Shown here one piece after another: positions 1 through 29,577 of a stretch of 55,225 nucleotides of DNA. The notes under the pieces were generated by a model that did no database searches, was not told where the DNA came from, and saw nothing but the letters and a program-made list of their open reading frames with translations. The stretch covers positions 1 through 55,225 of the IMG/VR virus record IMGVR_UViG_3300020473_000034; one strand, given 5' to 3'. The translations under genes were made by a program, and so were the position numbers. The stretch comes from a virus. Position 1 is the first letter of the stretch. Each line of letters begins with the position of its first letter.

Positions 1-165
1 GAGTATGCTGCTAATGCTACCGCATGTGAAGAGTTCCTATATGTGTTCACTTTAGATCATACATGGGAGTGCTATGCAATCAATCATACTTATGATGATG
101 ATTGGAATGTTATAGACACTAACATAGAAGGAAGAGAAATCCCATCTGAAGTGCCAGCAGAATAA
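1..165 (+). CDS. Hypothetical protein, 3' part only
   Basis: The first reading frame is open from the first base to a TAA at 163-165 (54 codons visible). The start lies outside the window. The visible part is acidic and rich in Thr, Tyr, Asp and Trp and ends in VPAE. I do not recognise a family. The last codons and the stop fall inside an inverted repeat (151-172) that recurs at the ends of other genes here. Confidence 0.6.
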   Translation, partial: EYAANATACEEFLYVFTLDHTWECYAINHTYDDDWNVIDTNIEGREIPSEVPAE

Positions 166-172
166 CTGGCAC
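151..172. repeat. Intergenic inverted-repeat element, copy 1
   Basis: GTGCCAG (151-157) and CTGGCAC (166-172) are perfect 7-bp inverted arms around an 8-base loop that contains the stop codon of the preceding gene. It is the first of ten related elements whose shared core approximates TGACAST-N5-AASTGGCAC. Confidence 0.7.
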
Positions 173-180
173 ACTCGTCC

Positions 181-208
181 TTGAAGCATGACGTTAAACT
201 GCTATACT
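181..208 (+). promoter_or_regulatory. Sigma70-type promoter for the RNA at 214-513
   Basis: TTGAAG (181-186), 16 bases, then TATACT (203-208). Transcription would begin near 214-216, exactly where the first long RNA stem starts, which supports both calls. Confidence 0.55.
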
Positions 209-213
209 ATAGA

Positions 214-513
214 AGTTGAGGCAAGGGTTCAATAATTTTGGATACGGCATACCAACACCTTATACCCCTCTATGGGTGAGGTCAATGCGAAAGATGGTAC
301 ACTCCTTATATTATTACTTGCTTCAACTGCTCTAATCTCCTTTGGTAGTTTCAGGATTAGGGGCGATAGGAAACTACCATGATAGGCAGTTAGGTCTAAA
401 GATGCTTTGACCTCTGATTCACTTATGATGATTTAAGTCCGTACTGCAATTACTAACTGCCTATCACCATTATTTCAGGGCAAGGATCTATGGTTGTCTC
501 TGTTCAGCAGAGA
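214..513 (+). ncRNA. Candidate large structured RNA (about 300 nt)
   Basis: No convincing ORF lies between 166 and 560, but the stretch is full of inverted repeats. P1 is a 12-bp pairing of 214-225 with 317-328 (one G-U). P3 pairs 257-260 with 279-282 and, inside it, 264-267 with 274-277. P4 is a perfect 10-bp stem, 343-352 with 370-379. P5 is a perfect 13-bp stem, 381-393 (GATAGGCAGTTAG) with 453-465. P6 is a 6-bp hairpin, 497-502 with 508-513. In addition 278-285 (GAGGTCAA) is complementary to 407-414 inside the P5 loop, a possible pseudoknot or switch. It is not a tRNA, and I see no group I intron or tmRNA core. It could be a cis-acting leader of the small gene at 561 or a free RNA. Structured RNAs such as the manA and wcaG motifs are known from cyanophages, but I cannot assign this one. 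Confidence 0.6.
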
Positions 514-560
514 AATTACGTCCTGTAAGTCCCATTTTGTAAACCCTAGACACATTTATT

Positions 561-689
561 ATGTCAGCACCAGTTCAATCAGCAGTATCTCCAAACTTTG
601 CAGAGTTCCTATTGGACAATGCAGTAGATGGAAATGAAATCCTAGCAGTCCTTGATGATATTGCAGAGGTGAGTGATACTGCACTATGA
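561..689 (+). CDS. Small hypothetical protein (42 aa)
   Basis: ATG at 561, TGA at 687-689. The product is acidic and probably helical, with N-terminal MSAPVQSAVSP and a core containing EFLLDNAVDGNEILAVLDDI. It lies 48 bases after the last stem of the structured RNA. No clear Shine-Dalgarno sequence is visible. The leader TTGTAAACC plus ACATTTATTATG is nearly repeated before the gene at 1420. Function unknown. Confidence 0.6.
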   Translation: MSAPVQSAVSPNFAEFLLDNAVDGNEILAVLDDIAEVSDTAL

Positions 690-716: not shown

Positions 717-739
717 AAACCCCCGAAAGGGGGTTTTTT
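717..739 (+). terminator. Intrinsic terminator
   Basis: AAACCCCC (717-724), GAAA tetraloop, GGGGGTTT (729-736), continuing into a T run to 739. An 8-bp stem with a GNRA loop: a strong Rho-independent terminator. Confidence 0.85.
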
Positions 740-16182: not shown

Positions 16183-19100
16183 ATGATACAAACAGGATTT
16201 GAAAGTAGAGTAAAGATTCAAGATATTATATCGAATCAACTTCCAAATTATATTTTGGATGAGAGTCCTCTTACCTCTGACTTTCTTAAACAATATTATA
16301 TTTCACAAGAATATCAGGGTGGTCCTATCGACCTTTCTGATAATTTGGATCAATATTTAAAGCTTGATAATTTAACTCCTGATGTAATAGTCGATTCAAC
16401 AACATTATCAGAAGATATTAGTAGCACAGATTTAACAATAACAGTATCGGATACAAAAGGATTTCCGAATAGTTATGGATTATTGAAGATTGATAATGAA
16501 ATTATTACATATACAGAAAAAACATCTACTACATTTACTGGATGTGAACGTGGATTTAGTGGTATTACAAGTTATCATCAATCTTTAAATAGTGAAGAAT
16601 TAATATTTTCTACTTCAGATGCTGCAAGTCATAAGAAGGATTCAAGTATTCAAAATTTAAGTTCTTTATTTCTTAAAGAATTTTATAAAAAAACCAAAAG
16701 AACATTTACTCCAGGATTAGAAGATTCCACTTTCACTTCAGATTTAGATGCTGGTAATTTTATAAGAGAAGCAAAATCTTTATATGATACAAAAGGAACG
16801 GATGAATCGTTCAGAATACTGTTTAATATTCTTTATAATGAAACTCCAGATATAATTAATCTTGAGGAAAGATTAATTAAACCATCAACCTCAAAGTATG
16901 TTAGAAGAAGAATTGCTGTTGGGGAGGTAATTCAAGGAAATCCTACAAAATTAAAAGGGCAATCAATTTTTAAGAGTAAACTTAATAATACTGATATTAA
17001 TGTTTCTGTATCAGAAGTAGAAGCTTTTGTCAGAACTGGTATAGGAACTTATTATAAATTTGGATTATTCATTGATAATAGTGGATCTGATGAAATTTCA
17101 AATACGTTTAATATTATTCCAAACTCAAGAGTAATTGGAAATGTATCTGTTGGTTCTTCAATTATTACTGTAGATTCTACCGTTGGATTTAGTACTTCAG
17201 GAACTTTAATAACTGGAGATAACACATCTATTCAGTATACAAGTAAAACAATAAATCAATTTTTAGGTGTAAGTGATATTACTTCTGATATTAAATCAAT
17301 GGATAATGTTAGAAGTGATGATTATTATTATGGATATGAGGATGGTGATATTACTAAAGAGGTAAGATTAAGATTTACTGGTGTTCTGTCAGAATTTGTA
17401 CAAGACGGAAAACTAATTGTTGATGAAGGTGATATTATTGGGATAAAAAATATTGGAGATAAAATTGATAATCCAGAAAATAATTCAACTTTTAAAGAAA
17501 TATTTGCAAATTCATGGATTTATAATAGTAGTTCCTCATATAAACTAAAATATGATCCACTTCAAGCTACATCTGTAACATTTTTTAGTCCTGTAGATAG
17601 ATCTAGCTTAAAATATGGTGATGATATAGAAATTGTTGATGATGGAAGTAAAGATATTGTATATCCAACACCTACTAGTGATTTACCATATGTTAGTCAA
17701 GAACTTGAAAATGGTGAAGTTGGAGTTAATTTATCGAATTATACTCATACTTTGGGGGAAAATAGTCATCAATCATTAAGAAGAAAACTAAAGACGGCAA
17801 ATAGTTCTAATACACCAATACAATTTGGTAATGATAATGTAACATCAGATGTTCAAAATGTATATGTAAAAGATGATGTAGCATACGTAGCATCAAATTC
17901 ATTACCATCATATAGTTCAATAGGATCTTTTCCATATAATGAACAAATAACAGTTAATATTAGAACTTCAACTCTAGATTTTGATGGTTCTGCTGGTGGT
18001 AAATTGGAGGATATAATTGATGTTAGTAGTGATTTATATTCTACAATATCTTTTGAATCTCCTCATCCATTTAAAAATGGAGATAAAATTTATTATGATC
18101 CATCAGAATCTAGTTTAGTTGGATTAGAAACGGGAATTTATTATATTAAAAAAATTAGTGGTAATAAAATAAAATTATATGGTTCTACTTCTGGTATTTT
18201 AGGTGATAGGTATATTCCTCTTGGATATCCTCCTACAGAGTTTGATGGGAATCACAAATTTACATTATATTCCCAAAAATCTGGAGTAATTGGACCTCAA
18301 AAATTATTAAAGAAATTTCCATTAAAACAGAATCTTAAAAATGGTACATCAGTAGAAACACTTCCTGGTGGGACTGGTATGTTGGTTAATGGTGTTGAAA
18401 TTAATAATTATAAGTCATTAGATAAAATTCATTATGGTCCAATAAATTCAGTTTCTGTATTAAATTCTGGTGAAGATTATGATGTTATAAATCCACCAAA
18501 TATAACTTTATCATCACCAATTAGTACTGGTACAACTGCACTTATACATCCAGTGTTATCGGGTAAGATTGATAAAATTTTATTAGATAATCAAGATTTT
18601 GATATCGACTCTATTGTTTCTATAGGAATTACTGGTGGTAATAGTAGTGGATACGCTCTACAACCAATATTTAAGACAAGATATAGAGAAATTGAATTTA
18701 ATGCTAAAAAATCACCAGCTGGTGGTATTAATACTTCACCTGGTGATCCAGCATCATGTCAAATTACATTTTTATCAAATCACAATCTTACTACAGGTCA
18801 GTCTGTAGTCTATGAAAGTATTGGAAATCCAGAAGTTGGTGTTGGTATTGGAACTAGTACACTAGTTAATTTTTCAACCTATTATGTTGAAAGAATTAAT
18901 CAAGATACAATAAGACTTTATAATAGTCTTTCTGATGCTAATGGTACTTCATTGAATGGTATTGGTGGTATTGGAATTAATACAATTCATCTTAATGGTA
19001 GTGGGTCTGGTGTTCAAAGGTTTGTAGTTAATCAAAAAAATACATTATCAAGTGTCAAGGTATTAGATGGTGGTAATTATACAAATAGAAGTTTACTGGT

Positions 19101-22100
19101 GAAACCATCTGGAATTTCTACTTCTTTGAATAATATAACGTTTAAAAATCATGGTTTTAATAGTGGTGAATTAATTCAATATTCTGCTGTTGATGGAATT
19201 TCTAATAAAATTGATGGATTATCATTTGATAACCAATATTATGTTCTTAAAGATAATGATGATTCGTTCAGATTATGTGATGCTGGTATTGGTGGAACTA
19301 TTTCACAAAACTATATTTCTAGAAATATAGTTTCATTAGGTTCTACAACTGGAGTTGGATATCAACAATTTAAATATCCTGATATTAAAGGTTATTTGCA
19401 AATTATTAATAGTGATGGTGGACAAAATAATATTGAGGAAATTCCAATAACTCCTGTAATTAAAGGTTCGATTACTGATATTATACTTTATGAAAGTGGG
19501 TCTGGATATGGTTCAACTATCCTCAACAATATAAAGAGTCCAATAGTTACTATAAAGACTGGAAAAGATGCAGAATTAAGACCATTTTTTAATAATGGGA
19601 AGATTAGTGATGTTAGTGTTGAATATGGTGGAGAAGATTATTATTCATTACCTGATTTGGAGGTTGTTGATCCTACAGGAAGTGGTTCTGGAGCTGAATT
19701 AAGACCTATTATTACAAATTTAAAAATAACAGGTGTTGAAATTTCAAATGCAGGTATAGGATACTCATCATCTTCTTCAATTTTAATTAAATCTTCTGGT
19801 AAAAATTTAATATTAAAACCAGAAATTAGATCACTTACAGTTAATAACCAAGTTAGATTTAAGGAAGATAGTAAACATTATCAATTAGTAGATACAGAGA
19901 ATAATTTAAAATATACTGCATATGGATATAAACCAGATACATTTGGTGATTCTGTCACTGAAGGATCTAGTGCATCAAAATTAATTGGATGGGCATATGA
20001 TGGGAACCCAATATATGGTGGATATGGATTAGTAAGTCCAAATGAAAATCCATCAAATCCTAATGCACCTACAAAGAGAATGCAATCTGGATATACTTTA
20101 GATATATCTAAAGTTGTTGATAGGCCCATAGGATTTTCAAATGGTTATTTTGTTGATGATTATACTTATGATAATAGTGGTGATTTGGATGAATATAATG
20201 GTAGATTTGAAAAAACTGTAGATTTTCCTGATGGTGTATATGCATACCATGCAACGTTAGATGAAGATAATGATCCTACATTTCCTTACTTTATAGGAAA
20301 CAAATACAGATCTATTCCAATAGAAGAAAATCTTACAACTTTTGATCAATTATCATTCGATTTTAATACTTCTGGAGTTTTAAGAAATACTCTTCCATAT
20401 AAAGTTTCCGATATTAATGCGGATAATGATTTTATTGTCGAAAGTTCAGAAGTTGATACTCAAGAAATAGAAATTGAATCAATTTCAAGTGGAAATATAT
20501 CAGAATTTGATTTATTGAATAGGGGTTCTGGTTATAAAGTAAATGAAAATTTAAATTTTGACAATTCAGGAACTGAAGGTCAAGGATTGCTTGCAAGAGT
20601 TAGGTCTTTAGATGGTAAAGATTTGCAATCTATTAATACTGATATTGAAACTTATACTAATTCAGTATTAACATGGAATGATAGAAAATTAACTGTAACA
20701 GTTGATCCACATCATAATTTTAATGAGAATGATTATATTACAATTTCTGGAATTTCTACTGATTTATCTCATATTAATGGATCATATAAAGTTGGAATAA
20801 CATCATTTGTTTCAAATACAATATCAACTATTGCTGCATCACCATCAGCTGGATTTACCACTGAAATATATGTTTCAAGAATACCAACTGTTTCTATTGG
20901 AAGTAGTATACAGATAGGTTCTGAAAAGATGAAGATTCTGAATATATTTGAAAATCTGAATGTTCTTAGAGTAAAAAGAGGTAATAATTCTAGTGATTAT
21001 ACAGTAGAAATTCCAGAAAATAGTAGAGTAGAGTTTTTAACAAATTCTTTTAAAATTGATGAAAAAGTAGATTATTTTGATTCTTCTATTTCGGATAAGA
21101 TTTATTTCAACCCATCTAAGTCGGTTGGTGTGGGTGTAGATGATGGAACTACTCATTCAGTAGTATTTAATTTTGCAGGTAATGATATTGTAAGAAATAT
21201 ACCCATAAAACAATTATATATTGAAAATCATCCATTCCACAACAATCAAAAAGTTAATTTAACTGTTCCTAGTGGTTATGGTAATGCTAATAATTTTGGA
21301 AATGTATCAATTTCAACGAATAAAACATCCACACAATTTGATTTACCAACATCTGATTTATATATTGTCAATAAAGGTATTAATACTATAGGAATTAAAA
21401 CTGGAATTGGTACAGCTAGTGATGGATATGAATATGAAGAGGTTTATTTCCGTAATATACACAGCATGGATGATGATAATTATTTACTAGAAAGTGCTGA
21501 TGATAAACAGGTTTTATGTAAAGCTCAAAGGATTAGAACAGTAGTATCTGTTTCTACATCACATAATTTAACCAATAATGATAGTGTTTCTTTAGAAGTT
21601 AAACCTAATATTTCTTCTGGAATTGGATCTGATGTAAATGTAGAAGTAAAAAGAGATATTCTTACTGGACATTTATTAATTAATCCAATTACGTTTAGTA
21701 GTGGTGATATTAATCTTGGTAATAACACCATTACTTTGGGTAGTAAAGGAAGTAATTTAAAAACAGGAGATAAGGTTTTATATTCGGGTGATGCTACAGG
21801 ATTAACACCAGGAAATTATTATGTTTATAAAGTTGATGATAAAATAATTAAATTATGCCAAACATATTATGATGCAACTAGAATAGTACCTAATATTGTA
21901 GATATTACAGGCACTGGTTCTACGGGACAAATAATTAGCTTAGTTAATCCACAAATTCTTGCAACAAAAAATACTGATCTAGTTTTTGATCATTCAGATT
22001 CTTCATTAACTGGATATAATTTTAATTTATATTATGATCAAGAATTTAAAAATAGATTTGTTGGTACTGGTAAAACTTCATCATTTAATGTCTCTGCACA

Positions 22101-25100
22101 GTCATCAATAACTACTGTAAGTTATGGTAGTAGTTTATCTAGGAAATTATATTACAATATAGAAAAATCTGGGTTTATTTCCACTTCTGATACAGATGTT
22201 ATTAATAATTCAGAAATAGTATATATTGATAGTGTATATCATGGTGATTATAAAATTTCTGGGGTTGGAAATACAGATTTTACAATATATTTAAATAAAA
22301 TTCCAGAAAAATCTTCATATACTTCAACACAATGTGATTTACTTAAATATACTACTACTTCAAAATCTTATAGTGGTCCTATTGATAAAATAGAGATAAT
22401 TTCTGGTGGGTCTGGATATAAAAAAGTTCCAACTTTCGTTGGTGTTGGGTCTACATCAATCGGTAAGGATGCTGTAATAATACCAAAATCTAAAAATATA
22501 GGTAATGTATCTAAAATTAGAATAATTAACCAAGGATTTGAATATTCATCAGATAAAACATTAAATCCAACTGCGTATGTTTCACCAATAATTGAGTTGA
22601 AAAATTCAAATTCAATTGGAATAGTTACTGTAACTTCTGGTGGAAAAAATTATCTATCATCACCAAATATTGTTATTGTTAATTCTGAAACTAGAAAGTT
22701 AATTGATAGTGGATTCTTAGAACCAAAAATGATAGATAATTCTATTTTAGATGTAAATATTGTTGAAAAACCCCATGGACTTCCAGATTCTACAGTAACA
22801 TTAAAAACAACAAATAATACTAATGGAATTACAATTTCTTCTGTAGATTCTTCAACTCCAGCAAGTGATACTGGATATACTGTAATATTAGTTACACCAA
22901 CACTTGGTTTTAAAGAAGCACCATTTAAGGCTGGGGATAAAGTATTTATTGAAGGTATTGAAAAATATGGTGTACTTGGTGATGGTTTCAATTCGGAGAA
23001 TCTTGGATATGAATTTTTAACAATAGAATCTATTGTAGGTGGAGATAATCCAAATCCATTTAAATTTACAGTTAGTGCTGTTGGATTAACAACAATGGTT
23101 GGTACTGCAGTTACAACACCAACAGGATTTACGGCAGTTATCCCAGAATCTGATTATCCAACATTAATTGCCACTCAATCTAAAGAAGGGTTTGATATAG
23201 GTGAATTTATTACAGTAAATTCTATAGACTCACAAATCAAAGTAACATCAAATGATGATTCATCTATTAAAGTTACTGGACTTGGTGTTGATGATTTATC
23301 TGTTGGTGATGTTATTCTTGGAAAAACATCAGGTAATAAAGCAACTATATCAAAAATTACAGAAAATCATGGTAAATATGAAATTGATTTTTCGTCTGTG
23401 AAGGATGTTGGTTGGATTGATTCGGTTGGAAGACTAAATGATGATAGTCAAGTAATACCTGATAATGATTATTACCAAAATTTATCATATTCTGTTAAGA
23501 GTTCAATTACTTGGGATACATTACAAACTCCAGTCAATAATGTCCTTCATACAAGTGGATTGAAGAATTTTGCTGATACTGGAATTACTTCAACTGCTTC
23601 TGTTGGTATAGGTTATTCTATTGGAACTACAATAATTAGAGATATTTTTGAGGAGAAGAGAGTTGATGAAATTCAAGGTGTTGATCTAGTTAGAGATACT
23701 GAGGTTACAGGTGATGTTGCTAGATTAATAGAATTTAAAAATATAAGATTATCTGATTATATTGCATGTTTAACAAATGAAGTATTTACATTTGATAATA
23801 TTAATCAACAGTTTTCAAATTTAGAAGATACTGAAACATATTATGTAGATCTTATGGATATACCTGCAGATGGTAGGTATCAAAATTTTATAGTTAGGGT
23901 TGAAAGTAATACTAATACTGGAATATCAACACAAGTTCAATTATCAGAATTGGTTCTGATAAATTCTTATCCATATTCTAATAATGATCAAAATGTATTA
24001 TTGGAAAAATATCAATTATTTAATTCTGATAATGATGGATTTGTTTCTGTTGAAAAAGATCAATTAGGAACATTTAAAATTGTTAAAGATGAATTAACTG
24101 CAGTAAATACTCTTAGATTTTATCCAAAAGAAAAGTTTAATGTTGACTATGATTTAAAAATTCTTAAAGGTGAATTTACAAATGTAGTTTCTACTGCAGC
24201 AACTGTTAAAGTTGGTCCGATTGACAACAGTATATTTGTTCAACAAGTTACTAGTGGATCTACAAATGATATTTTATCCGTTGGTATTACTAGTATAAAT
24301 TCATTCTTTGTTAATGCACAAATTGTTGATAAATCAACTGGACAATTAAATTTTGTTGAAGCTTATGTTACCCATAATGGTCAAGATAGTTTTATATCAG
24401 AATCATATATTGACTCTGAACCATCTATAATTTCATCAAATAGAATTGGTATTTTAACTTCGAATTTAGATTCTGGAACATTAAAATTGAGTTATGAGAA
24501 TGATACATCTACTGATGTTATTGTTAGATCAAAGGTTGTTGGTTTTGGTACAACTGGATTTATTACTCCAGAAGGACATACTGGTGTTGGAACATATAGA
24601 TTCCAGAATCCAGCAGAACCAGATGGATATGAAAGGTCTGTAATCTATCAAGGAATATCTACTAGTGGTGTAGGAAAGACAACTATATTAGGGATAAGTT
24701 CCTCTTTATTTAATTCTGCTACATCTATAGTAGAAGTTAGTATAGGATCATCCAAAGCAGTACATGAAGTATTGAGTTTACATGATGGTATAGATGTTTA
24801 TGTGCAACCAGCACAATTCTTGGCTGATAGTTCCAATAATTTGGGATTAGGTACTTTTGGTGGTGAATATGATCCTGCTAGTGGTGATTATGTGGTAAGT
24901 TTTTACCCTGATAACTTAGTAGGTGTAACAACAGTATCAATATTTAATAAGTGTTTTTATAGATCTATTGATAGATTTAATATTTCCGACACTTTAGTTT
25001 ATGGTAGTGGATATACTGAAAATTTAGATTTTAAATTGTATAATGCTATTAATGGATTTAGAATTAGTAAGAAAGATTTTGAATTAACTACAAATTCAAT

Positions 25101-28100
25101 ACCAGTATTCTCTAAAAAAGTTAATCCTAGTTTCGAATCAGATTTAGTTCTTTCTACAGGTAAATTTAAGGTTAATGATCACTTCTTCAGAACCAACCAA
25201 ACCTTAAGTTATGAACCAAAATCAACAATACTTGGTATTGGATCTACTGCAATGCAGTATATGTCTGCAGATAACATAATGGATACATTACCATCTACAG
25301 TCTTTGCTATAAAGAATGATGATAATACATTCCAAATTTCTACTACAAGAACTGGAACTGCTGTTACCTTTACAGGAATTGGAGAAGGAAATGCTCATAC
25401 ATTCTCTATGGTCAATCCAAATGAAAAATCAATAATAAGTATTGATGATATTGTCCAATATCCAATAACACCAACTCCAATATCTCACAAATTAAGATAT
25501 AATGATGGTGGTCAAATAGGTTTTGCTAATACTATTTTCTCTTTGAGTGGAATATCAACTATACTTGTTGATGATATAATAAAAATTGATAATGAGTATA
25601 TGAAGGTTATCAACGTTGGTGTTGGAACAACTGGTGCTGGACCAATCACACCAGGAATTGGAACATTCCCATGTGTAGGAGTTGAAAGGGGTGCTCTTGG
25701 TACTCTTTCATCTATACACACAAACGAGGCTGTAGTTGATAGATTTAAGGGTAGTTTTAATATAGTTGATAGCACTCTTTGGTTTGCTACCCCACCTAGA
25801 GGAAATCCTACATTAAGTATATTACCAAATGGGTTGAAATTCCCAACTTCTGATTTTAATGGAAGAACATTTTTAAGAAATGATTATACAACAAATGATG
25901 TATATGATGATATTAGTGATCAATTTAATGGATTAACAACCTCATTTACATTGACTGTAGGTGGTGCAAATACTATAGGTATTGGAACTAGTGGTGGAAA
26001 TGGAGTTTTATTCATAAATGGAATATTCCAAACACCAACAACAGACAATAATCCAGCAAATAATTTTAAAATTATAGAAACTGGTAGTGGTGCTACTGGT
26101 GTAACTAGTGTTGTATTCTCTGGCATAACATCCACAGATGGAACATTAATTAAATCTGAGTATGATATTAATAGAAATGAATTACCAAGAGGTGGAATTC
26201 CAATTTCCTTCGGTTCAACTACTGGTTCTGGATATGCACCTCTTGTTGGAGCAAATGTAAGACCTATCTTAGATGCTAGTGGATCAATTACAAGTATAGT
26301 TGGTGTTGCAACCACTGGGGCAGCACTGGGAGTACATACAGCAGTGTATGATAATACTAGTGGAATATTAACAGTTACTACTATTGTAGATCATCAATTA
26401 GTTGATGGTGGACATGTTGATGAGGTTAAATTATCTCGTTTAGGATTCACATGTCCATCTGGAAGTGGTATAACAACAAATTACTTCCCAAGTGGAGCAT
26501 ATGGAGATACATTCTCTATTATTGGTGTAGAAGATACTAATAAGTTTAGTGTCAATGTTGGAACAAGTACTATTCCACATACTTATGTTGGTGCTGGAGA
26601 TAGTTCTGGAACTGTTTTCCCATGGTATGGAGATCTTACATTAGGTTCTGGTTATAATGGTATAGTTCCTATTTCAGTAACAGTTAAAGATAGTGGATAT
26701 GATCATGAATTTATAAGTGCCACTAATAATGCTATTACTAAAACTACATGGAATGGTACTGGAATTACTCCTACAAATGCTATTTTTGATTCACTTTCTG
26801 GAATTGTTACGTTTACGGCAACTTCTCATGGCTTGGTTACAGGTGATAAAGTAGGTATTGCAACAGGGTCATTAACATTTAAGTGTTCTAAGGATAATTA
26901 CGCATCAGAACATAAGTATCCTCGTGGACCATTTACTCATCAGTTTGATAGTGCTGATGCTAATGCTGTTAATAACTCATTACAACCTATTGGTGCTGAT
27001 TACAACGCCCTAACAGGTGACATGGTATTGACATTTGCTTCTGCTCATAATATAAGTAATGGAGCATTTATAACAATTACTGATAATTCTATTAGATTTA
27101 AGTGTGCTAAAGATAATTATACAACAATACATAGTTATCCAAGATTATCAGATCCTGCATCTGGGTCTAATTTAACGGTTTCTAATGCAACTGCTAATGA
27201 TCTTACAGTTAATGTTGGAGCATCTAATACAAAAGAAGATCCAGTAACTGGTATTTTAACTACAGTTACTAAGTTAAATAATAATATCTTTAGTGTATTT
27301 GTTGGAAGTGCAGTTGGTGAAGATGCTAATATCACAGCTACTCCAAAAACAGTTAATACTCATGTATTTGATAGTGCAAATAGTACTTTAAGTAATTGTA
27401 TTTTCATTAATAATTGGAGTGGTTCAGGTGGTCAAAAATCAATATCAGGTGCTGCATATACTGCATCTACTGGAGAATTGATGTTAGATATTGGGACTAC
27501 AGGTATGCCTTCAGCAGGTTCAGATAAAGTTGGTATTAAGACTAGTTCTCTAGCATTTAGATGTAATCAAGATGATTATAATAGTGTACATAAGTATCCT
27601 AGAACAAGTGACCCAGTTAATGGAACATTAATTGATATTACTAAGGTGGATACTAACACAGGAATGATTTTTGTTAATGTTGGAAAATCCAATACAAATT
27701 GTGGTGGTGCGTTAGACTTTACAGTAGTTGGTGGTGGAACAAGTTATACCAATCCTAAGATATTTGTTACAGAACCTTCTTATGCTGGTTTAGGTATAAC
27801 AGGAGTTTCAAGAGTTGGTGAAGGTCCAACGACAGATACTGGTTTTGGACTGCGTTTGGATGTTGAAGTAGGTGCTGCTCAGACTTCTGGTATAGGATCT
27901 GGTTTTTATGAAATTTCTAATTTTGATATTACTAGAAGTGGATATTCATTTAAACGTGGTGATGTTTTCTCACCAATTGGATTGGTTACTGATAGAAAAT
28001 TATATGAACCATTTGAACAAGCAACTATTGAAGTTGATAATATCTACACTGATAATTTCTCAATGTGGCAGTTTGGAGAATTTGATTATATAGATTCAAT

Positions 28101-29577
28101 TAAAAATTACCAAGATGGTATAAGAACTAGATTCCCATTATTCTATAATGGATCAAAAATTAGTGTTGATGCTGATCCTAATTTTGATAGTATTCTTGCA
28201 AATGTAATGTTTGTTGTTGTAAATGGAGTTATTCAGCAACCAATAGAATCATATGATTTTATTGGTGGAGCATCTATAAACTTCACAATGCCTCTAGATC
28301 CTGAAGATAATGTTGCAATATTCTTCTATAAAGGAACAGATAATGAAGATGCTGTTGTATCTACAGGAACAACTGTTTATCTTGAACTTGGTGATACTGT
28401 TGAGATTTCAGGTATTGGAACTATTGCCGAACAGGATGATAGAATTATTAAGTCTTTAAATACATCAACTAGTTTAGAGACAAACTTATATACTAGTGTT
28501 GGTATTAATGATGATGTTTATAGACCAATAAATCTTATAAAACAAAAACAGGATAAAATAATTGATAGAGAATTTATATCCAAGAAAAGAGTTAATTTGG
28601 AACCATTAATTCTTCCAGCTGCAAAAATAATTAGTGATGTCACCACATCTAATACTACATTTTTTGTTGATAATGCACATTTATTTGATTATGAAGGATC
28701 AAGTTCACAATTTAGTGGAATAATTGTTTCTGGTAAAGAAAATCCATCTATACCATCTGCAACTGCAACCATTAATACTACAGCAACTACAGTAACATCA
28801 ATTTCAGTTACTGGAGGTTCTGGATATACTTCAGTTCCATCTGTTTCAATTTCTGCACCACCAGAAATTGGTGTTGGTATTGGAACTACTGCAACTGCAA
28901 CTGCAACCATATCTAATGGTACTGTAGACAATATTACAGTAACTGAAGTAGGACTTGGATATACAATCGCACCTAAAGTTTTAATTGAACCACCAGATTC
29001 TATAGATGAGTTGGTGAAATGCCCTACAGGAAGTAATATTACAGTTGAATCTACTTCAGGTATAATTACAGGAATAGGAACTACTACTGTTGGTTCATTA
29101 TTGGGGATCAAATTCTTTGCTAAGGGACCAACTGTAGCTTCATTTAATCCCATATCTGTTGGGAATCCAATTTATGTTTATGATACAGCAGTTGGAACAG
29201 GATTAACTTCAATGAATGTTGCTAATACTACTGCAGTTGGAATCGGAACTAGTTTTACTGATAATGTATATTCTGTTGCAGAATTTACTACTCGTGGAGA
29301 TGGTAATAATGAATTCCTTGGAATTATTACATGTGTGATAAAATCAGATACTAATGTAGTTGGTTTTGCATCAACTGGAGCAAGTATTAACGATCCTGTT
29401 GGATATTATTCTGTTGGAAAACTATCAGGATTTGATAGAAGTAGTTCACCAATTTCTATTGGTGTAAATGGATTAACAGTTGATGTAGGGTTAACAACAT
29501 ACCCAACATTACAAAGAAGAGGTGGTCCAGGAGATGATACTTGGAAACAAACTGGAGGTTTAATAACACCAGAATAA
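16183..29577 (+). CDS. 7: Giant gp7-like baseplate wedge protein (4464 aa)
   Basis: About 24% of the window. Residues about 170-240 (LFLKEFYKKTKRTF ... AKSLYDTKGTDESFRILFNI, LYNE) match the T4 gp7 C-terminal segment 'FYSTKG..AS.KFLFKVLYNEE', so this is a gp7-type wedge in which the conserved domain sits at the N-terminus. The rest is repeats: many 'GSGY..-P.V' units; 'GD.V.Y....GL...YYV....I.L' units; and 'KIDNE...Y..-ERG' units near residues 100-130 and 3130-3185. There is a YHYH-type domain (GWAYDGNPIYGGYG near 1268, YAYHATL near 1352), and three 'F.C..D.Y...H.YPR' repeats near 3566, 3637 and 3790. T4 gp7 is 1032 aa. The extra mass may form baseplate appendages or side fibres. Coding is intact with no frameshift over 13.4 kb. 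Confidence 0.75.
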   Translation: MIQTGFESRVKIQDIISNQLPNYILDESPLTSDFLKQYYISQEYQGGPIDLSDNLDQYLKLDNLTPDVIVDSTTLSEDISSTDLTITVSDTKGFPNSYGLLKIDNEIITYTEKTSTTFTGCERGFSGITSYHQSLNSEELIFSTSDAASHKKDSSIQNLSSLFLKEFYKKTKRTFTPGLEDSTFTSDLDAGNFIREAKSLYDTKGTDESFRILFNILYNETPDIINLEERLIKPSTSKYVRRRIAVGEVIQGNPTKLKGQSIFKSKLNNTDINVSVSEVEAFVRTGIGTYYKFGLFIDNSGSDEISNTFNIIPNSRVIGNVSVGSSIITVDSTVGFSTSGTLITGDNTSIQYTSKTINQFLGVSDITSDIKSMDNVRSDDYYYGYEDGDITKEVRLRFTGVLSEFVQDGKLIVDEGDIIGIKNIGDKIDNPENNSTFKEIFANSWIYNSSSSYKLKYDPLQATSVTFFSPVDRSSLKYGDDIEIVDDGSKDIVYPTPTSDLPYVSQELENGEVGVNLSNYTHTLGENSHQSLRRKLKTANSSNTPIQFGNDNVTSDVQNVYVKDDVAYVASNSLPSYSSIGSFPYNEQITVNIRTSTLDFDGSAGGKLEDIIDVSSDLYSTISFESPHPFKNGDKIYYDPSESSLVGLETGIYYIKKISGNKIKLYGSTSGILGDRYIPLGYPPTEFDGNHKFTLYSQKSGVIGPQKLLKKFPLKQNLKNGTSVETLPGGTGMLVNGVEINNYKSLDKIHYGPINSVSVLNSGEDYDVINPPNITLSSPISTGTTALIHPVLSGKIDKILLDNQDFDIDSIVSIGITGGNSSGYALQPIFKTRYREIEFNAKKSPAGGINTSPGDPASCQITFLSNHNLTTGQSVVYESIGNPEVGVGIGTSTLVNFSTYYVERINQDTIRLYNSLSDANGTSLNGIGGIGINTIHLNGSGSGVQRFVVNQKNTLSSVKVLDGGNYTNRSLLVKPSGISTSLNNITFKNHGFNSGELIQYSAVDGISNKIDGLSFDNQYYVLKDNDDSFRLCDAGIGGTISQNYISRNIVSLGSTTGVGYQQFKYPDIKGYLQIINSDGGQNNIEEIPITPVIKGSITDIILYESGSGYGSTILNNIKSPIVTIKTGKDAELRPFFNNGKISDVSVEYGGEDYYSLPDLEVVDPTGSGSGAELRPIITNLKITGVEISNAGIGYSSSSSILIKSSGKNLILKPEIRSLTVNNQVRFKEDSKHYQLVDTENNLKYTAYGYKPDTFGDSVTEGSSASKLIGWAYDGNPIYGGYGLVSPNENPSNPNAPTKRMQSGYTLDISKVVDRPIGFSNGYFVDDYTYDNSGDLDEYNGRFEKTVDFPDGVYAYHATLDEDNDPTFPYFIGNKYRSIPIEENLTTFDQLSFDFNTSGVLRNTLPYKVSDINADNDFIVESSEVDTQEIEIESISSGNISEFDLLNRGSGYKVNENLNFDNSGTEGQGLLARVRSLDGKDLQSINTDIETYTNSVLTWNDRKLTVTVDPHHNFNENDYITISGISTDLSHINGSYKVGITSFVSNTISTIAASPSAGFTTEIYVSRIPTVSIGSSIQIGSEKMKILNIFENLNVLRVKRGNNSSDYTVEIPENSRVEFLTNSFKIDEKVDYFDSSISDKIYFNPSKSVGVGVDDGTTHSVVFNFAGNDIVRNIPIKQLYIENHPFHNNQKVNLTVPSGYGNANNFGNVSISTNKTSTQFDLPTSDLYIVNKGINTIGIKTGIGTASDGYEYEEVYFRNIHSMDDDNYLLESADDKQVLCKAQRIRTVVSVSTSHNLTNNDSVSLEVKPNISSGIGSDVNVEVKRDILTGHLLINPITFSSGDINLGNNTITLGSKGSNLKTGDKVLYSGDATGLTPGNYYVYKVDDKIIKLCQTYYDATRIVPNIVDITGTGSTGQIISLVNPQILATKNTDLVFDHSDSSLTGYNFNLYYDQEFKNRFVGTGKTSSFNVSAQSSITTVSYGSSLSRKLYYNIEKSGFISTSDTDVINNSEIVYIDSVYHGDYKISGVGNTDFTIYLNKIPEKSSYTSTQCDLLKYTTTSKSYSGPIDKIEIISGGSGYKKVPTFVGVGSTSIGKDAVIIPKSKNIGNVSKIRIINQGFEYSSDKTLNPTAYVSPIIELKNSNSIGIVTVTSGGKNYLSSPNIVIVNSETRKLIDSGFLEPKMIDNSILDVNIVEKPHGLPDSTVTLKTTNNTNGITISSVDSSTPASDTGYTVILVTPTLGFKEAPFKAGDKVFIEGIEKYGVLGDGFNSENLGYEFLTIESIVGGDNPNPFKFTVSAVGLTTMVGTAVTTPTGFTAVIPESDYPTLIATQSKEGFDIGEFITVNSIDSQIKVTSNDDSSIKVTGLGVDDLSVGDVILGKTSGNKATISKITENHGKYEIDFSSVKDVGWIDSVGRLNDDSQVIPDNDYYQNLSYSVKSSITWDTLQTPVNNVLHTSGLKNFADTGITSTASVGIGYSIGTTIIRDIFEEKRVDEIQGVDLVRDTEVTGDVARLIEFKNIRLSDYIACLTNEVFTFDNINQQFSNLEDTETYYVDLMDIPADGRYQNFIVRVESNTNTGISTQVQLSELVLINSYPYSNNDQNVLLEKYQLFNSDNDGFVSVEKDQLGTFKIVKDELTAVNTLRFYPKEKFNVDYDLKILKGEFTNVVSTAATVKVGPIDNSIFVQQVTSGSTNDILSVGITSINSFFVNAQIVDKSTGQLNFVEAYVTHNGQDSFISESYIDSEPSIISSNRIGILTSNLDSGTLKLSYENDTSTDVIVRSKVVGFGTTGFITPEGHTGVGTYRFQNPAEPDGYERSVIYQGISTSGVGKTTILGISSSLFNSATSIVEVSIGSSKAVHEVLSLHDGIDVYVQPAQFLADSSNNLGLGTFGGEYDPASGDYVVSFYPDNLVGVTTVSIFNKCFYRSIDRFNISDTLVYGSGYTENLDFKLYNAINGFRISKKDFELTTNSIPVFSKKVNPSFESDLVLSTGKFKVNDHFFRTNQTLSYEPKSTILGIGSTAMQYMSADNIMDTLPSTVFAIKNDDNTFQISTTRTGTAVTFTGIGEGNAHTFSMVNPNEKSIISIDDIVQYPITPTPISHKLRYNDGGQIGFANTIFSLSGISTILVDDIIKIDNEYMKVINVGVGTTGAGPITPGIGTFPCVGVERGALGTLSSIHTNEAVVDRFKGSFNIVDSTLWFATPPRGNPTLSILPNGLKFPTSDFNGRTFLRNDYTTNDVYDDISDQFNGLTTSFTLTVGGANTIGIGTSGGNGVLFINGIFQTPTTDNNPANNFKIIETGSGATGVTSVVFSGITSTDGTLIKSEYDINRNELPRGGIPISFGSTTGSGYAPLVGANVRPILDASGSITSIVGVATTGAALGVHTAVYDNTSGILTVTTIVDHQLVDGGHVDEVKLSRLGFTCPSGSGITTNYFPSGAYGDTFSIIGVEDTNKFSVNVGTSTIPHTYVGAGDSSGTVFPWYGDLTLGSGYNGIVPISVTVKDSGYDHEFISATNNAITKTTWNGTGITPTNAIFDSLSGIVTFTATSHGLVTGDKVGIATGSLTFKCSKDNYASEHKYPRGPFTHQFDSADANAVNNSLQPIGADYNALTGDMVLTFASAHNISNGAFITITDNSIRFKCAKDNYTTIHSYPRLSDPASGSNLTVSNATANDLTVNVGASNTKEDPVTGILTTVTKLNNNIFSVFVGSAVGEDANITATPKTVNTHVFDSANSTLSNCIFINNWSGSGGQKSISGAAYTASTGELMLDIGTTGMPSAGSDKVGIKTSSLAFRCNQDDYNSVHKYPRTSDPVNGTLIDITKVDTNTGMIFVNVGKSNTNCGGALDFTVVGGGTSYTNPKIFVTEPSYAGLGITGVSRVGEGPTTDTGFGLRLDVEVGAAQTSGIGSGFYEISNFDITRSGYSFKRGDVFSPIGLVTDRKLYEPFEQATIEVDNIYTDNFSMWQFGEFDYIDSIKNYQDGIRTRFPLFYNGSKISVDADPNFDSILANVMFVVVNGVIQQPIESYDFIGGASINFTMPLDPEDNVAIFFYKGTDNEDAVVSTGTTVYLELGDTVEISGIGTIAEQDDRIIKSLNTSTSLETNLYTSVGINDDVYRPINLIKQKQDKIIDREFISKKRVNLEPLILPAAKIISDVTTSNTTFFVDNAHLFDYEGSSSQFSGIIVSGKENPSIPSATATINTTATTVTSISVTGGSGYTSVPSVSISAPPEIGVGIGTTATATATISNGTVDNITVTEVGLGYTIAPKVLIEPPDSIDELVKCPTGSNITVESTSGIITGIGTTTVGSLLGIKFFAKGPTVASFNPISVGNPIYVYDTAVGTGLTSMNVANTTAVGIGTSFTDNVYSVAEFTTRGDGNNEFLGIITCVIKSDTNVVGFASTGASINDPVGYYSVGKLSGFDRSSSPISIGVNGLTVDVGLTTYPTLQRRGGPGDDTWKQTGGLITPE

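What the first reader, a model, noticed from the sequence alone, without database searches (positions are those of the whole stretch)
214..513. Large structured RNA with five or more long stems and a possible pseudoknot
Stems of 12, 10 and 13 bp (214-225/317-328, 343-352/370-379, 381-393/453-465) plus smaller hairpins tile a 300-base non-coding stretch. Its 5' end coincides with the start expected from a promoter at 181-208. An 8-base complement (278-285 with 407-414) would link two domains. This is far more pairing than AT-rich spacer should give by chance and does not look like tRNA, tmRNA or a group I intron.
Basis: partly seen in the sequence, partly recalled or inferred. Interest (0 to 1): 0.75.

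Follow-up and report, generated by a model that had tools for sequence, protein, structure and literature searches.

The report
Mix-and-match RNA leaders in cyanophages
The stretch is a real structured RNA at the start of a phage messenger RNA, and it belongs to an undescribed family in marine cyanobacterial viruses whose members are built from interchangeable, nested RNA modules in at least 100 different orders, most likely to protect the front end of phage transcripts.

Summary
The finding holds up and is larger than described. Window 215-533 is the 5' leader of a short transcript: sigma70-type promoter 181-208, leader, 42-aa ORF 561-689, terminator 720-739. It has no Rfam 15 match. F, P, H and D recur across marine cyanophages, including cultured P-SSM2 and P-SSM5 and Synechococcus phages. 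About 14 modules occur in 100 orders among 258 complete copies, nested in each other's helices. Structures covary strongly: H, D, and a long-range helix in a sister frame with 9 sequence versions in 141 copies. H also precedes tRNAs, so the role is probably not gene-specific translation control. Best guess: an exchangeable 5' cap shielding early phage RNAs from host RNase E/J. The RNA family is shown; this mechanism is inferred (about 0.4).

The parts
181..208 (+). sigma70-type promoter: -35 TTGAAG 181-186, 16-nt gap, -10 TATACT 203-208
   Evidence: In relatives a -10-like hexamer (at most 1 mismatch) precedes the closing stem in 74 of 78 leaders, always 6 nt (53 copies of the GUUGAG class) or 8 nt (21 of 21 of the GGGAAA class) away; control positions 12%
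215..328 (+). 5'-terminal closing stem P1 (214-225/317-328), an enlarged form of the GUUGAG-AAA-(U)CAAC hairpin that precedes H in simpler leaders; predicted +1 at 215, i.e. the first transcribed base is paired
225..316 (+). module F; inner helix AAUAAU 231-236 / AUUAUU 310-315; socket helix 250-253/296-299
   Evidence: relatives have AAUCAU/AUGAUU, a compensatory change; outer stem differs with each context
254..295 (+). module P, nested in F's socket
   Evidence: also in F of L040 and L056; related insert in a K frame of L059
328..379 (+). module H, H-type pseudoknot: S1 330-338/354-362, S2 344-352/370-378
   Evidence: 35 distinct sequences, 93.9% of cells paired vs 83.7% shuffled, 61 double changes vs 14.9, 0 of 500 shuffles; slid versions at most 54%
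381..465 (+). module G, 13-bp stem 381-393/453-465 with variable interior; no other copy found
   Evidence: fold z = -4.0
478..533 (+). module D: outer helix 478-480/531-533, P 483-486/521-524, hairpin 498-502/508-512, conserved internal loops
   Evidence: 33 distinct sequences, 98.3% of cells paired vs 87.7% shuffled, 37 double changes vs 9.4, 0 of 500 shuffles
561..689 (+). downstream ORF, 42 aa, NFAEFLL family (the leader's mRNA cargo)
720..739 (+). intrinsic terminator CCCCC-GAAA-GGGGG-T6 ending the unit, followed by the next promoter (-10 at about 745)

Best explanation
Shown: 215-533 is the structured 5' leader of a short phage transcription unit (promoter, leader, 42-aa ORF, terminator). 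It is one member of a family of modular RNA leaders in marine cyanophages. About 14 independently folding modules are chained and nested in each other's helices, and the composition turns over quickly at a given locus. Inferred: the leader is an RNA cap. The first transcribed base is locked in a long stem and compact modules (H, D) follow, so host 5'-end-dependent decay (RNase E sensing a free 5' end, and the 5'-3' exonuclease RNase J) cannot load or advance. Because each module acts as an independent block, modules can be exchanged, added or lost, and can sit in front of any RNA, mRNA or tRNA precursor.
For: No Rfam match. Covariation in H, D, F and the long-range AC helix. 100 orders in 258 complete copies. 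Sense ORF found downstream of 278 of 283 copies, median 27 nt away. Stem begins at the predicted +1 at a fixed distance from the -10 in 74 of 78 leaders vs 12% of control positions. H stands 5-10 nt before tRNA-Pro or tRNA-Arg in Synechococcus phages, in several behind a promoter and small hairpin, so its role does not require translation of a neighbouring gene. P-SSM2 and P-SSM5: flanks 99.0% and 95.7% identical, leaders different. Cyanobacteria carry RNase E and an apparently essential RNase J, and phage P-SSP7 raises RNase E on infection (PMC10989914).
Against: No expression, stability or nuclease data were available. If shielding were all that is needed, plain hairpins would do; strongly conserved unpaired bases in H and D suggest specific contacts with a ligand, protein or RNA polymerase. 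Only 8 of 77 homologues of the 42-aa gene in a gene-seeded set (window included) have a recognisable leader, so the cap is optional. Complete genomes or long contigs scanned hold only 1-3 clear leaders, not one per gene. G has no homologue.
Confidence: 0.42

Rival explanations
1. Each module is a sensor or protein-binding site and the leader controls translation or termination of its gene, like a riboswitch array or the T4 gene 32 operator.
For: The leader ends a fixed short distance before the start codon; conserved unpaired cores in H and D; manA and wcaG, also cyanophage leaders, were proposed as riboswitch candidates (PMC2864571); T4 gene 32 uses a leader pseudoknot (PMC3014915).
Against: The same modules precede unrelated genes, and H precedes tRNAs. 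Orthologous genes carry different module sets or none.
Confidence: 0.2
2. The nascent leader binds RNA polymerase and makes it resist terminators, like HK022 putRNA.
For: Leader lies immediately after early-type promoters, is gene-independent, and also heads tRNA operons; HK022 put RNA is a phage early-transcript element that suppresses pausing and termination (PMC9378689).
Against: The window unit has its own terminator right after one short gene. Antitermination should need one conserved polymerase contact, yet module sets vary freely.
Confidence: 0.12
3. The RNA itself is the product: a trans-acting or self-associating RNA whose 3' end carries a small ORF.
For: The leader makes up most of the unit; the E tail ends in a palindromic hexamer in 123 of 125 copies with six different palindromes, as expected for RNA-RNA self-pairing; ROOL and GOLLD are ornate RNAs that form homo-oligomers (PMC12286853, abstract only).
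Against: The window RNA has no E module; many different ORFs follow in sense at a short distance.
Confidence: 0.14
4. The modules are mainly recombination anchors, like the PeSL cassettes that shuffle genes in T4-type phages; the structure is incidental.
For: PeSL-like terminator-promoter junction at 720-757; leader replaced between P-SSM2 and P-SSM5; presence/absence at one locus.
Against: Compensatory changes including G.U intermediates show selection on RNA pairing, which a DNA anchor does not need.
Confidence: 0.08

Closest known systems
manA RNA (RF01745) and wcaG RNA (RF01761)
   Same: structured elements in potential 5' UTRs of marine T4-like cyanophages; manA lies in the same tRNA operons of S-B43 and ACG-2014f that begin with H, and upstream of purL in P-SSM2
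   Different: no manA or wcaG match in the window or in 14 relatives; those motifs are single units, not described as combinations of nested modules
PeSL cassettes of T4-type phages (Arbiol 2010; Comeau 2014, known here through PMC4503421)
   Same: early promoter and terminator cassettes between small genes, linked to shuffling
   Different: PeSLs are promoter-terminator motifs; they have no 300-nt pseudoknotted leader
GOLLD / ROOL / OLE large ornate RNAs
   Same: intricate large RNAs, some self-associating
   Different: no Rfam match; smaller here; sits in a 5' leader; composition varies by module exchange
T4 gene 32 leader pseudoknot
   Same: H-type pseudoknot in a T4-type phage mRNA leader
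   Different: gene-specific autoregulation; H is gene-independent and precedes tRNAs
HK022 putRNA
   Same: structured phage RNA near the start of early transcripts, gene-independent
   Different: acts on RNA polymerase; no sequence relation was tested here

Membership tests
manA RNA (RF01745) | match to the covariance model at gathering score | tested here: not met
   none in window or 14 relatives; the model works, finding manA in L286, L287 and L289
wcaG RNA (RF01761) | match to the covariance model | tested here: not met
GOLLD, ROOL, OLE and the other Rfam 15 families | match to the covariance model | tested here: not met
   4227 families, nothing at gathering; best permissive matches are far below it and unrelated
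tRNA / tmRNA | ARAGORN-detectable fold | tested here: not met
PeSL cassette | composite early promoter and stem-loop terminator between genes | tested here: met
   terminator 720-739 then -10 at about 745, and promoter 181-208; the leader itself is not part of that definition
PeSL cassette | mediates exchange of neighbouring genes by recombination | tested here: inconclusive
   leader exchange with conserved flanks seen; gene exchange not examined
riboswitch | ligand-induced change of expression | not testable with these tools
   needs in-line probing or reporters
exonuclease-resistant RNA | blocks a 5'-3' exonuclease | not testable with these tools
   needs a nuclease assay
T4 gene 32-type operator | pseudoknot upstream of the ssDNA-binding protein gene | tested here: not met
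   window H precedes a 42-aa NFAEFLL ORF

The most novel reading that the evidence does not exclude
Marine cyanophages share a library of at least 14 self-folding RNA parts with helical plugs and sockets and recombine them, chained and recursively nested, into custom 5' caps that shield phage transcripts from host RNA decay or RNA-targeting defence; one tail part (E) additionally makes the transcripts self-dimerise through interchangeable palindromes.
Probability: 0.35. Interest if true: 0.92.

Novelty: categorically new. Interest (0 to 1): 0.82.

Why it matters
I know of no RNA family assembled combinatorially from interchangeable, recursively nested modules. If confirmed it would show how evolution builds complex RNA from standard parts, supply a set of natural composable RNA modules, and point to an undescribed layer of RNA-level conflict or control in very abundant ocean viruses. 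It is directly testable because P-SSM2 and P-SSM5 are cultured phages of one species that differ in one leader. Caveat on novelty: the library held only openly licensed papers and no preprint collection, so prior description elsewhere is possible.

Tried and rejected
1) Rfam, at gathering and permissively: nothing relevant. 2) Coding: no ORF of 40 aa or more over 215-533. D contains a 12-codon ATG..TAA frame after an SD-like AAGGA, but diverged copies lose the frame and the changes follow base pairing. 4) A UUAC/GUAA stem in D: one side varies while the other does not, dropped. 5) Single-sequence folding misses H's stem S1, and H alone is not unusually stable (z = -0.6), so covariation rather than energy is the evidence. 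6) Homologues of G: none. 7) D in bacterial genomes: two isolated matches in a Bacteroidetes and an Oscillospiraceae MAG without the rest of the motif, judged chance. 8) Expectation that every gene of a genome carries such a leader: rejected; P-SSM2 has three clear ones. 9) Expectation that the leader belongs to the 42-aa gene: rejected; most homologues in a gene-seeded set lack a recognised module. 10) Terminator function for E: U-tracts after it are inconsistent.

Full report
What is in the window. The record is a 55-kb fragment of a T4-like cyanophage (terminase and major head protein found). At its left end lies a compact unit: promoter TTGAAG / 16 nt / TATACT (181-208), a non-coding stretch, a 42-aa ORF (561-689), and an intrinsic terminator (720-739) followed at once by the next promoter. 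Two perfect stems of 10 bp or more against 0.02 expected in shuffles and a fold z-score of -2.75 put it beyond chance. Rfam 15 has no match at gathering and nothing meaningful below it, and there is no tRNA or tmRNA.

It is modular. A search of cultured phages matched only parts of the region. The last part (D) is 86-98% identical to intergenic spots in P-SSM2, P-SSM5 and single-cell marine viruses, where it stands beside quite different structured sequence. Profiles and patterns for about 14 modules gave 330 zones; 258 complete ones show 100 different module orders. Modules are chained and also nested. D is a tail (L003), sits inside the AC frame (L006, L012), inside J (L005), inside K (L020, L118) or caps a bare stem (L019, L022), with the joining helix changing to fit each host. 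F accepts short loops, P, M, J or another insert in one socket. In this window the order is F with P inside, then H, G and D. G has no other copy.

The structures are real RNA structures. H is an H-type pseudoknot: on 35 distinct sequences 93.9% of cells pair (shuffled 83.7%), with 61 double changes (14.9) and a covariation score of 0.338 (0.132); no shuffle of 500 reaches these, and slid structures reach at most 54% paired. D: 98.3% paired (87.7%), 37 double changes (9.4), covariation score above every shuffle. F in the window has AAUAAU/AUUAUU where relatives have AAUCAU/AUGAUU. In the related AC frame two halves lying 12-229 nt apart form a 6-bp helix in nine sequence versions over 141 copies, fully paired in all but one copy (5 of 6), never matched by 10,000 shuffles. 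G.U intermediates and the constant orientation to the ORF argue for selection on RNA, not on DNA shape. Related sequences can exceed shuffles without structure, as the tool warns, but the slid controls and the number of independent helix versions make that explanation unlikely here.

Where it sits. In 278 of 283 zones a sense ORF starts within 220 nt downstream, median 27 nt. The closing stem begins exactly 6 nt (GUUGAG class) or 8 nt (GGGAAA class) after a -10-like hexamer in 74 of 78 leaders, against 12% at control positions. So the first transcribed base should be at or very near the base of the stem, here about 215. Cargo genes are varied: NFAEFLL peptides (23 orders in 40 copies), an RSRIG/YHHWDGYP family (27 orders in 41), basic proteins, a UvsW-like helicase and others, the names here being read from sequence motifs. 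P-SSM2 has three clear leaders. H alone occurs in Synechococcus phages. In S-SM2, Bellamy, S-B43, ACG-2014f, SynMITS9220M01, S-SCSM2R and S-H68 it is followed within 5-10 nt by a tRNA-Pro or tRNA-Arg gene, in several of them behind a promoter and a small GUUGAG-AAA-UCAAC-type hairpin; in S-SKS1, a Llyrvirus, the same promoter, hairpin and H precede an ORF. The window's 5' stem is the same hairpin enlarged by F.

How fast it changes. P-SSM2 and P-SSM5 are 99.0% identical over 2.4 kb before one leader and 95.7% over 2.4 kb after it, yet the leaders differ: D has a tail position in one and lies within K in the other, and the E tail ends in CCATGG in one and GCTAGC in the other. In a gene-seeded sample only 8 of 77 NFAEFLL homologues (window included) have a recognised leader, so the leader is optional and gained or lost; unrecognised modules could raise that number.

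Interpretation. A gene-independent element at the extreme 5' end of transcripts, able to precede mRNAs and tRNAs, made of exchangeable compact folds, fits best with protection of the RNA against 5'-end-dependent decay. Cyanobacteria have RNase E and an apparently essential RNase J, and P-SSP7 induces RNase E during infection (PMC10989914). This step is inference; nothing here measures stability. Riboswitch-like control, putRNA-like antitermination (PMC9378689), a trans-acting or self-associating RNA, and recombination anchoring of PeSL type (PMC4503421) remain possible at the odds given.

Novelty. Known structured leaders of cyanophages (manA, wcaG; PMC2864571) are single motifs and do not match. 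Searches of the open-access library found no description of a modular family; most subscription papers and preprint collections were not searched. The RNA family and its modular build are shown with high confidence (above 0.95); the protective mechanism is about 0.4.

Noticed in passing
E modules in many loci, e.g. L003:2567-2627, L004:2637-2697: Module E (a likely H-type pseudoknot) is followed at once by a palindromic hexamer in 123 of 125 copies: GCTAGC 60, CACGTG 22, CCTAGG 17, CTATAG 15, CCATGG 8, TCTAGA 1; the two exceptions (CCTTAGG, CCATTGG) are odd palindromes. Suggests RNA self-pairing.
   Followed up: partly
L287:2500-2839, L289:2489-2828, L286:1287-2556: H stands directly before tRNA genes in Synechococcus phages, and manA RNA (RF01745) lies between the tRNAs of the same operon, so manA may belong to the same class of gene-independent elements rather than being a riboswitch.
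   Followed up: partly
L003:2342-2643 versus L004:2455-2711: Two cultured phages of one species have a replaced leader between almost identical flanks, a natural experiment.
   Followed up: yes
window 150-173 and upstream of many leaders: An inverted repeat of the type GTGCCA(N)nTGGCACA, often overlapping or following the previous stop codon, precedes many leader promoters; function unknown.
   Followed up: no
window 479-532: D holds an SD-like AAGGA and a 12-codon ATG..TAA frame in most copies; not kept in diverged copies.
   Followed up: partly
L326:701-750 (S-SKS1): H occurs in a Llyrvirus, outside Kyanoviridae, so the element crosses phage families.
   Followed up: partly
window 16183-29577: A single open frame of 4464 codons among structural genes of this phage.
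   Followed up: no
window 381-465: Module G has a perfect 13-bp stem and no homologue in any scan; it may be a recent addition.
   Followed up: partly
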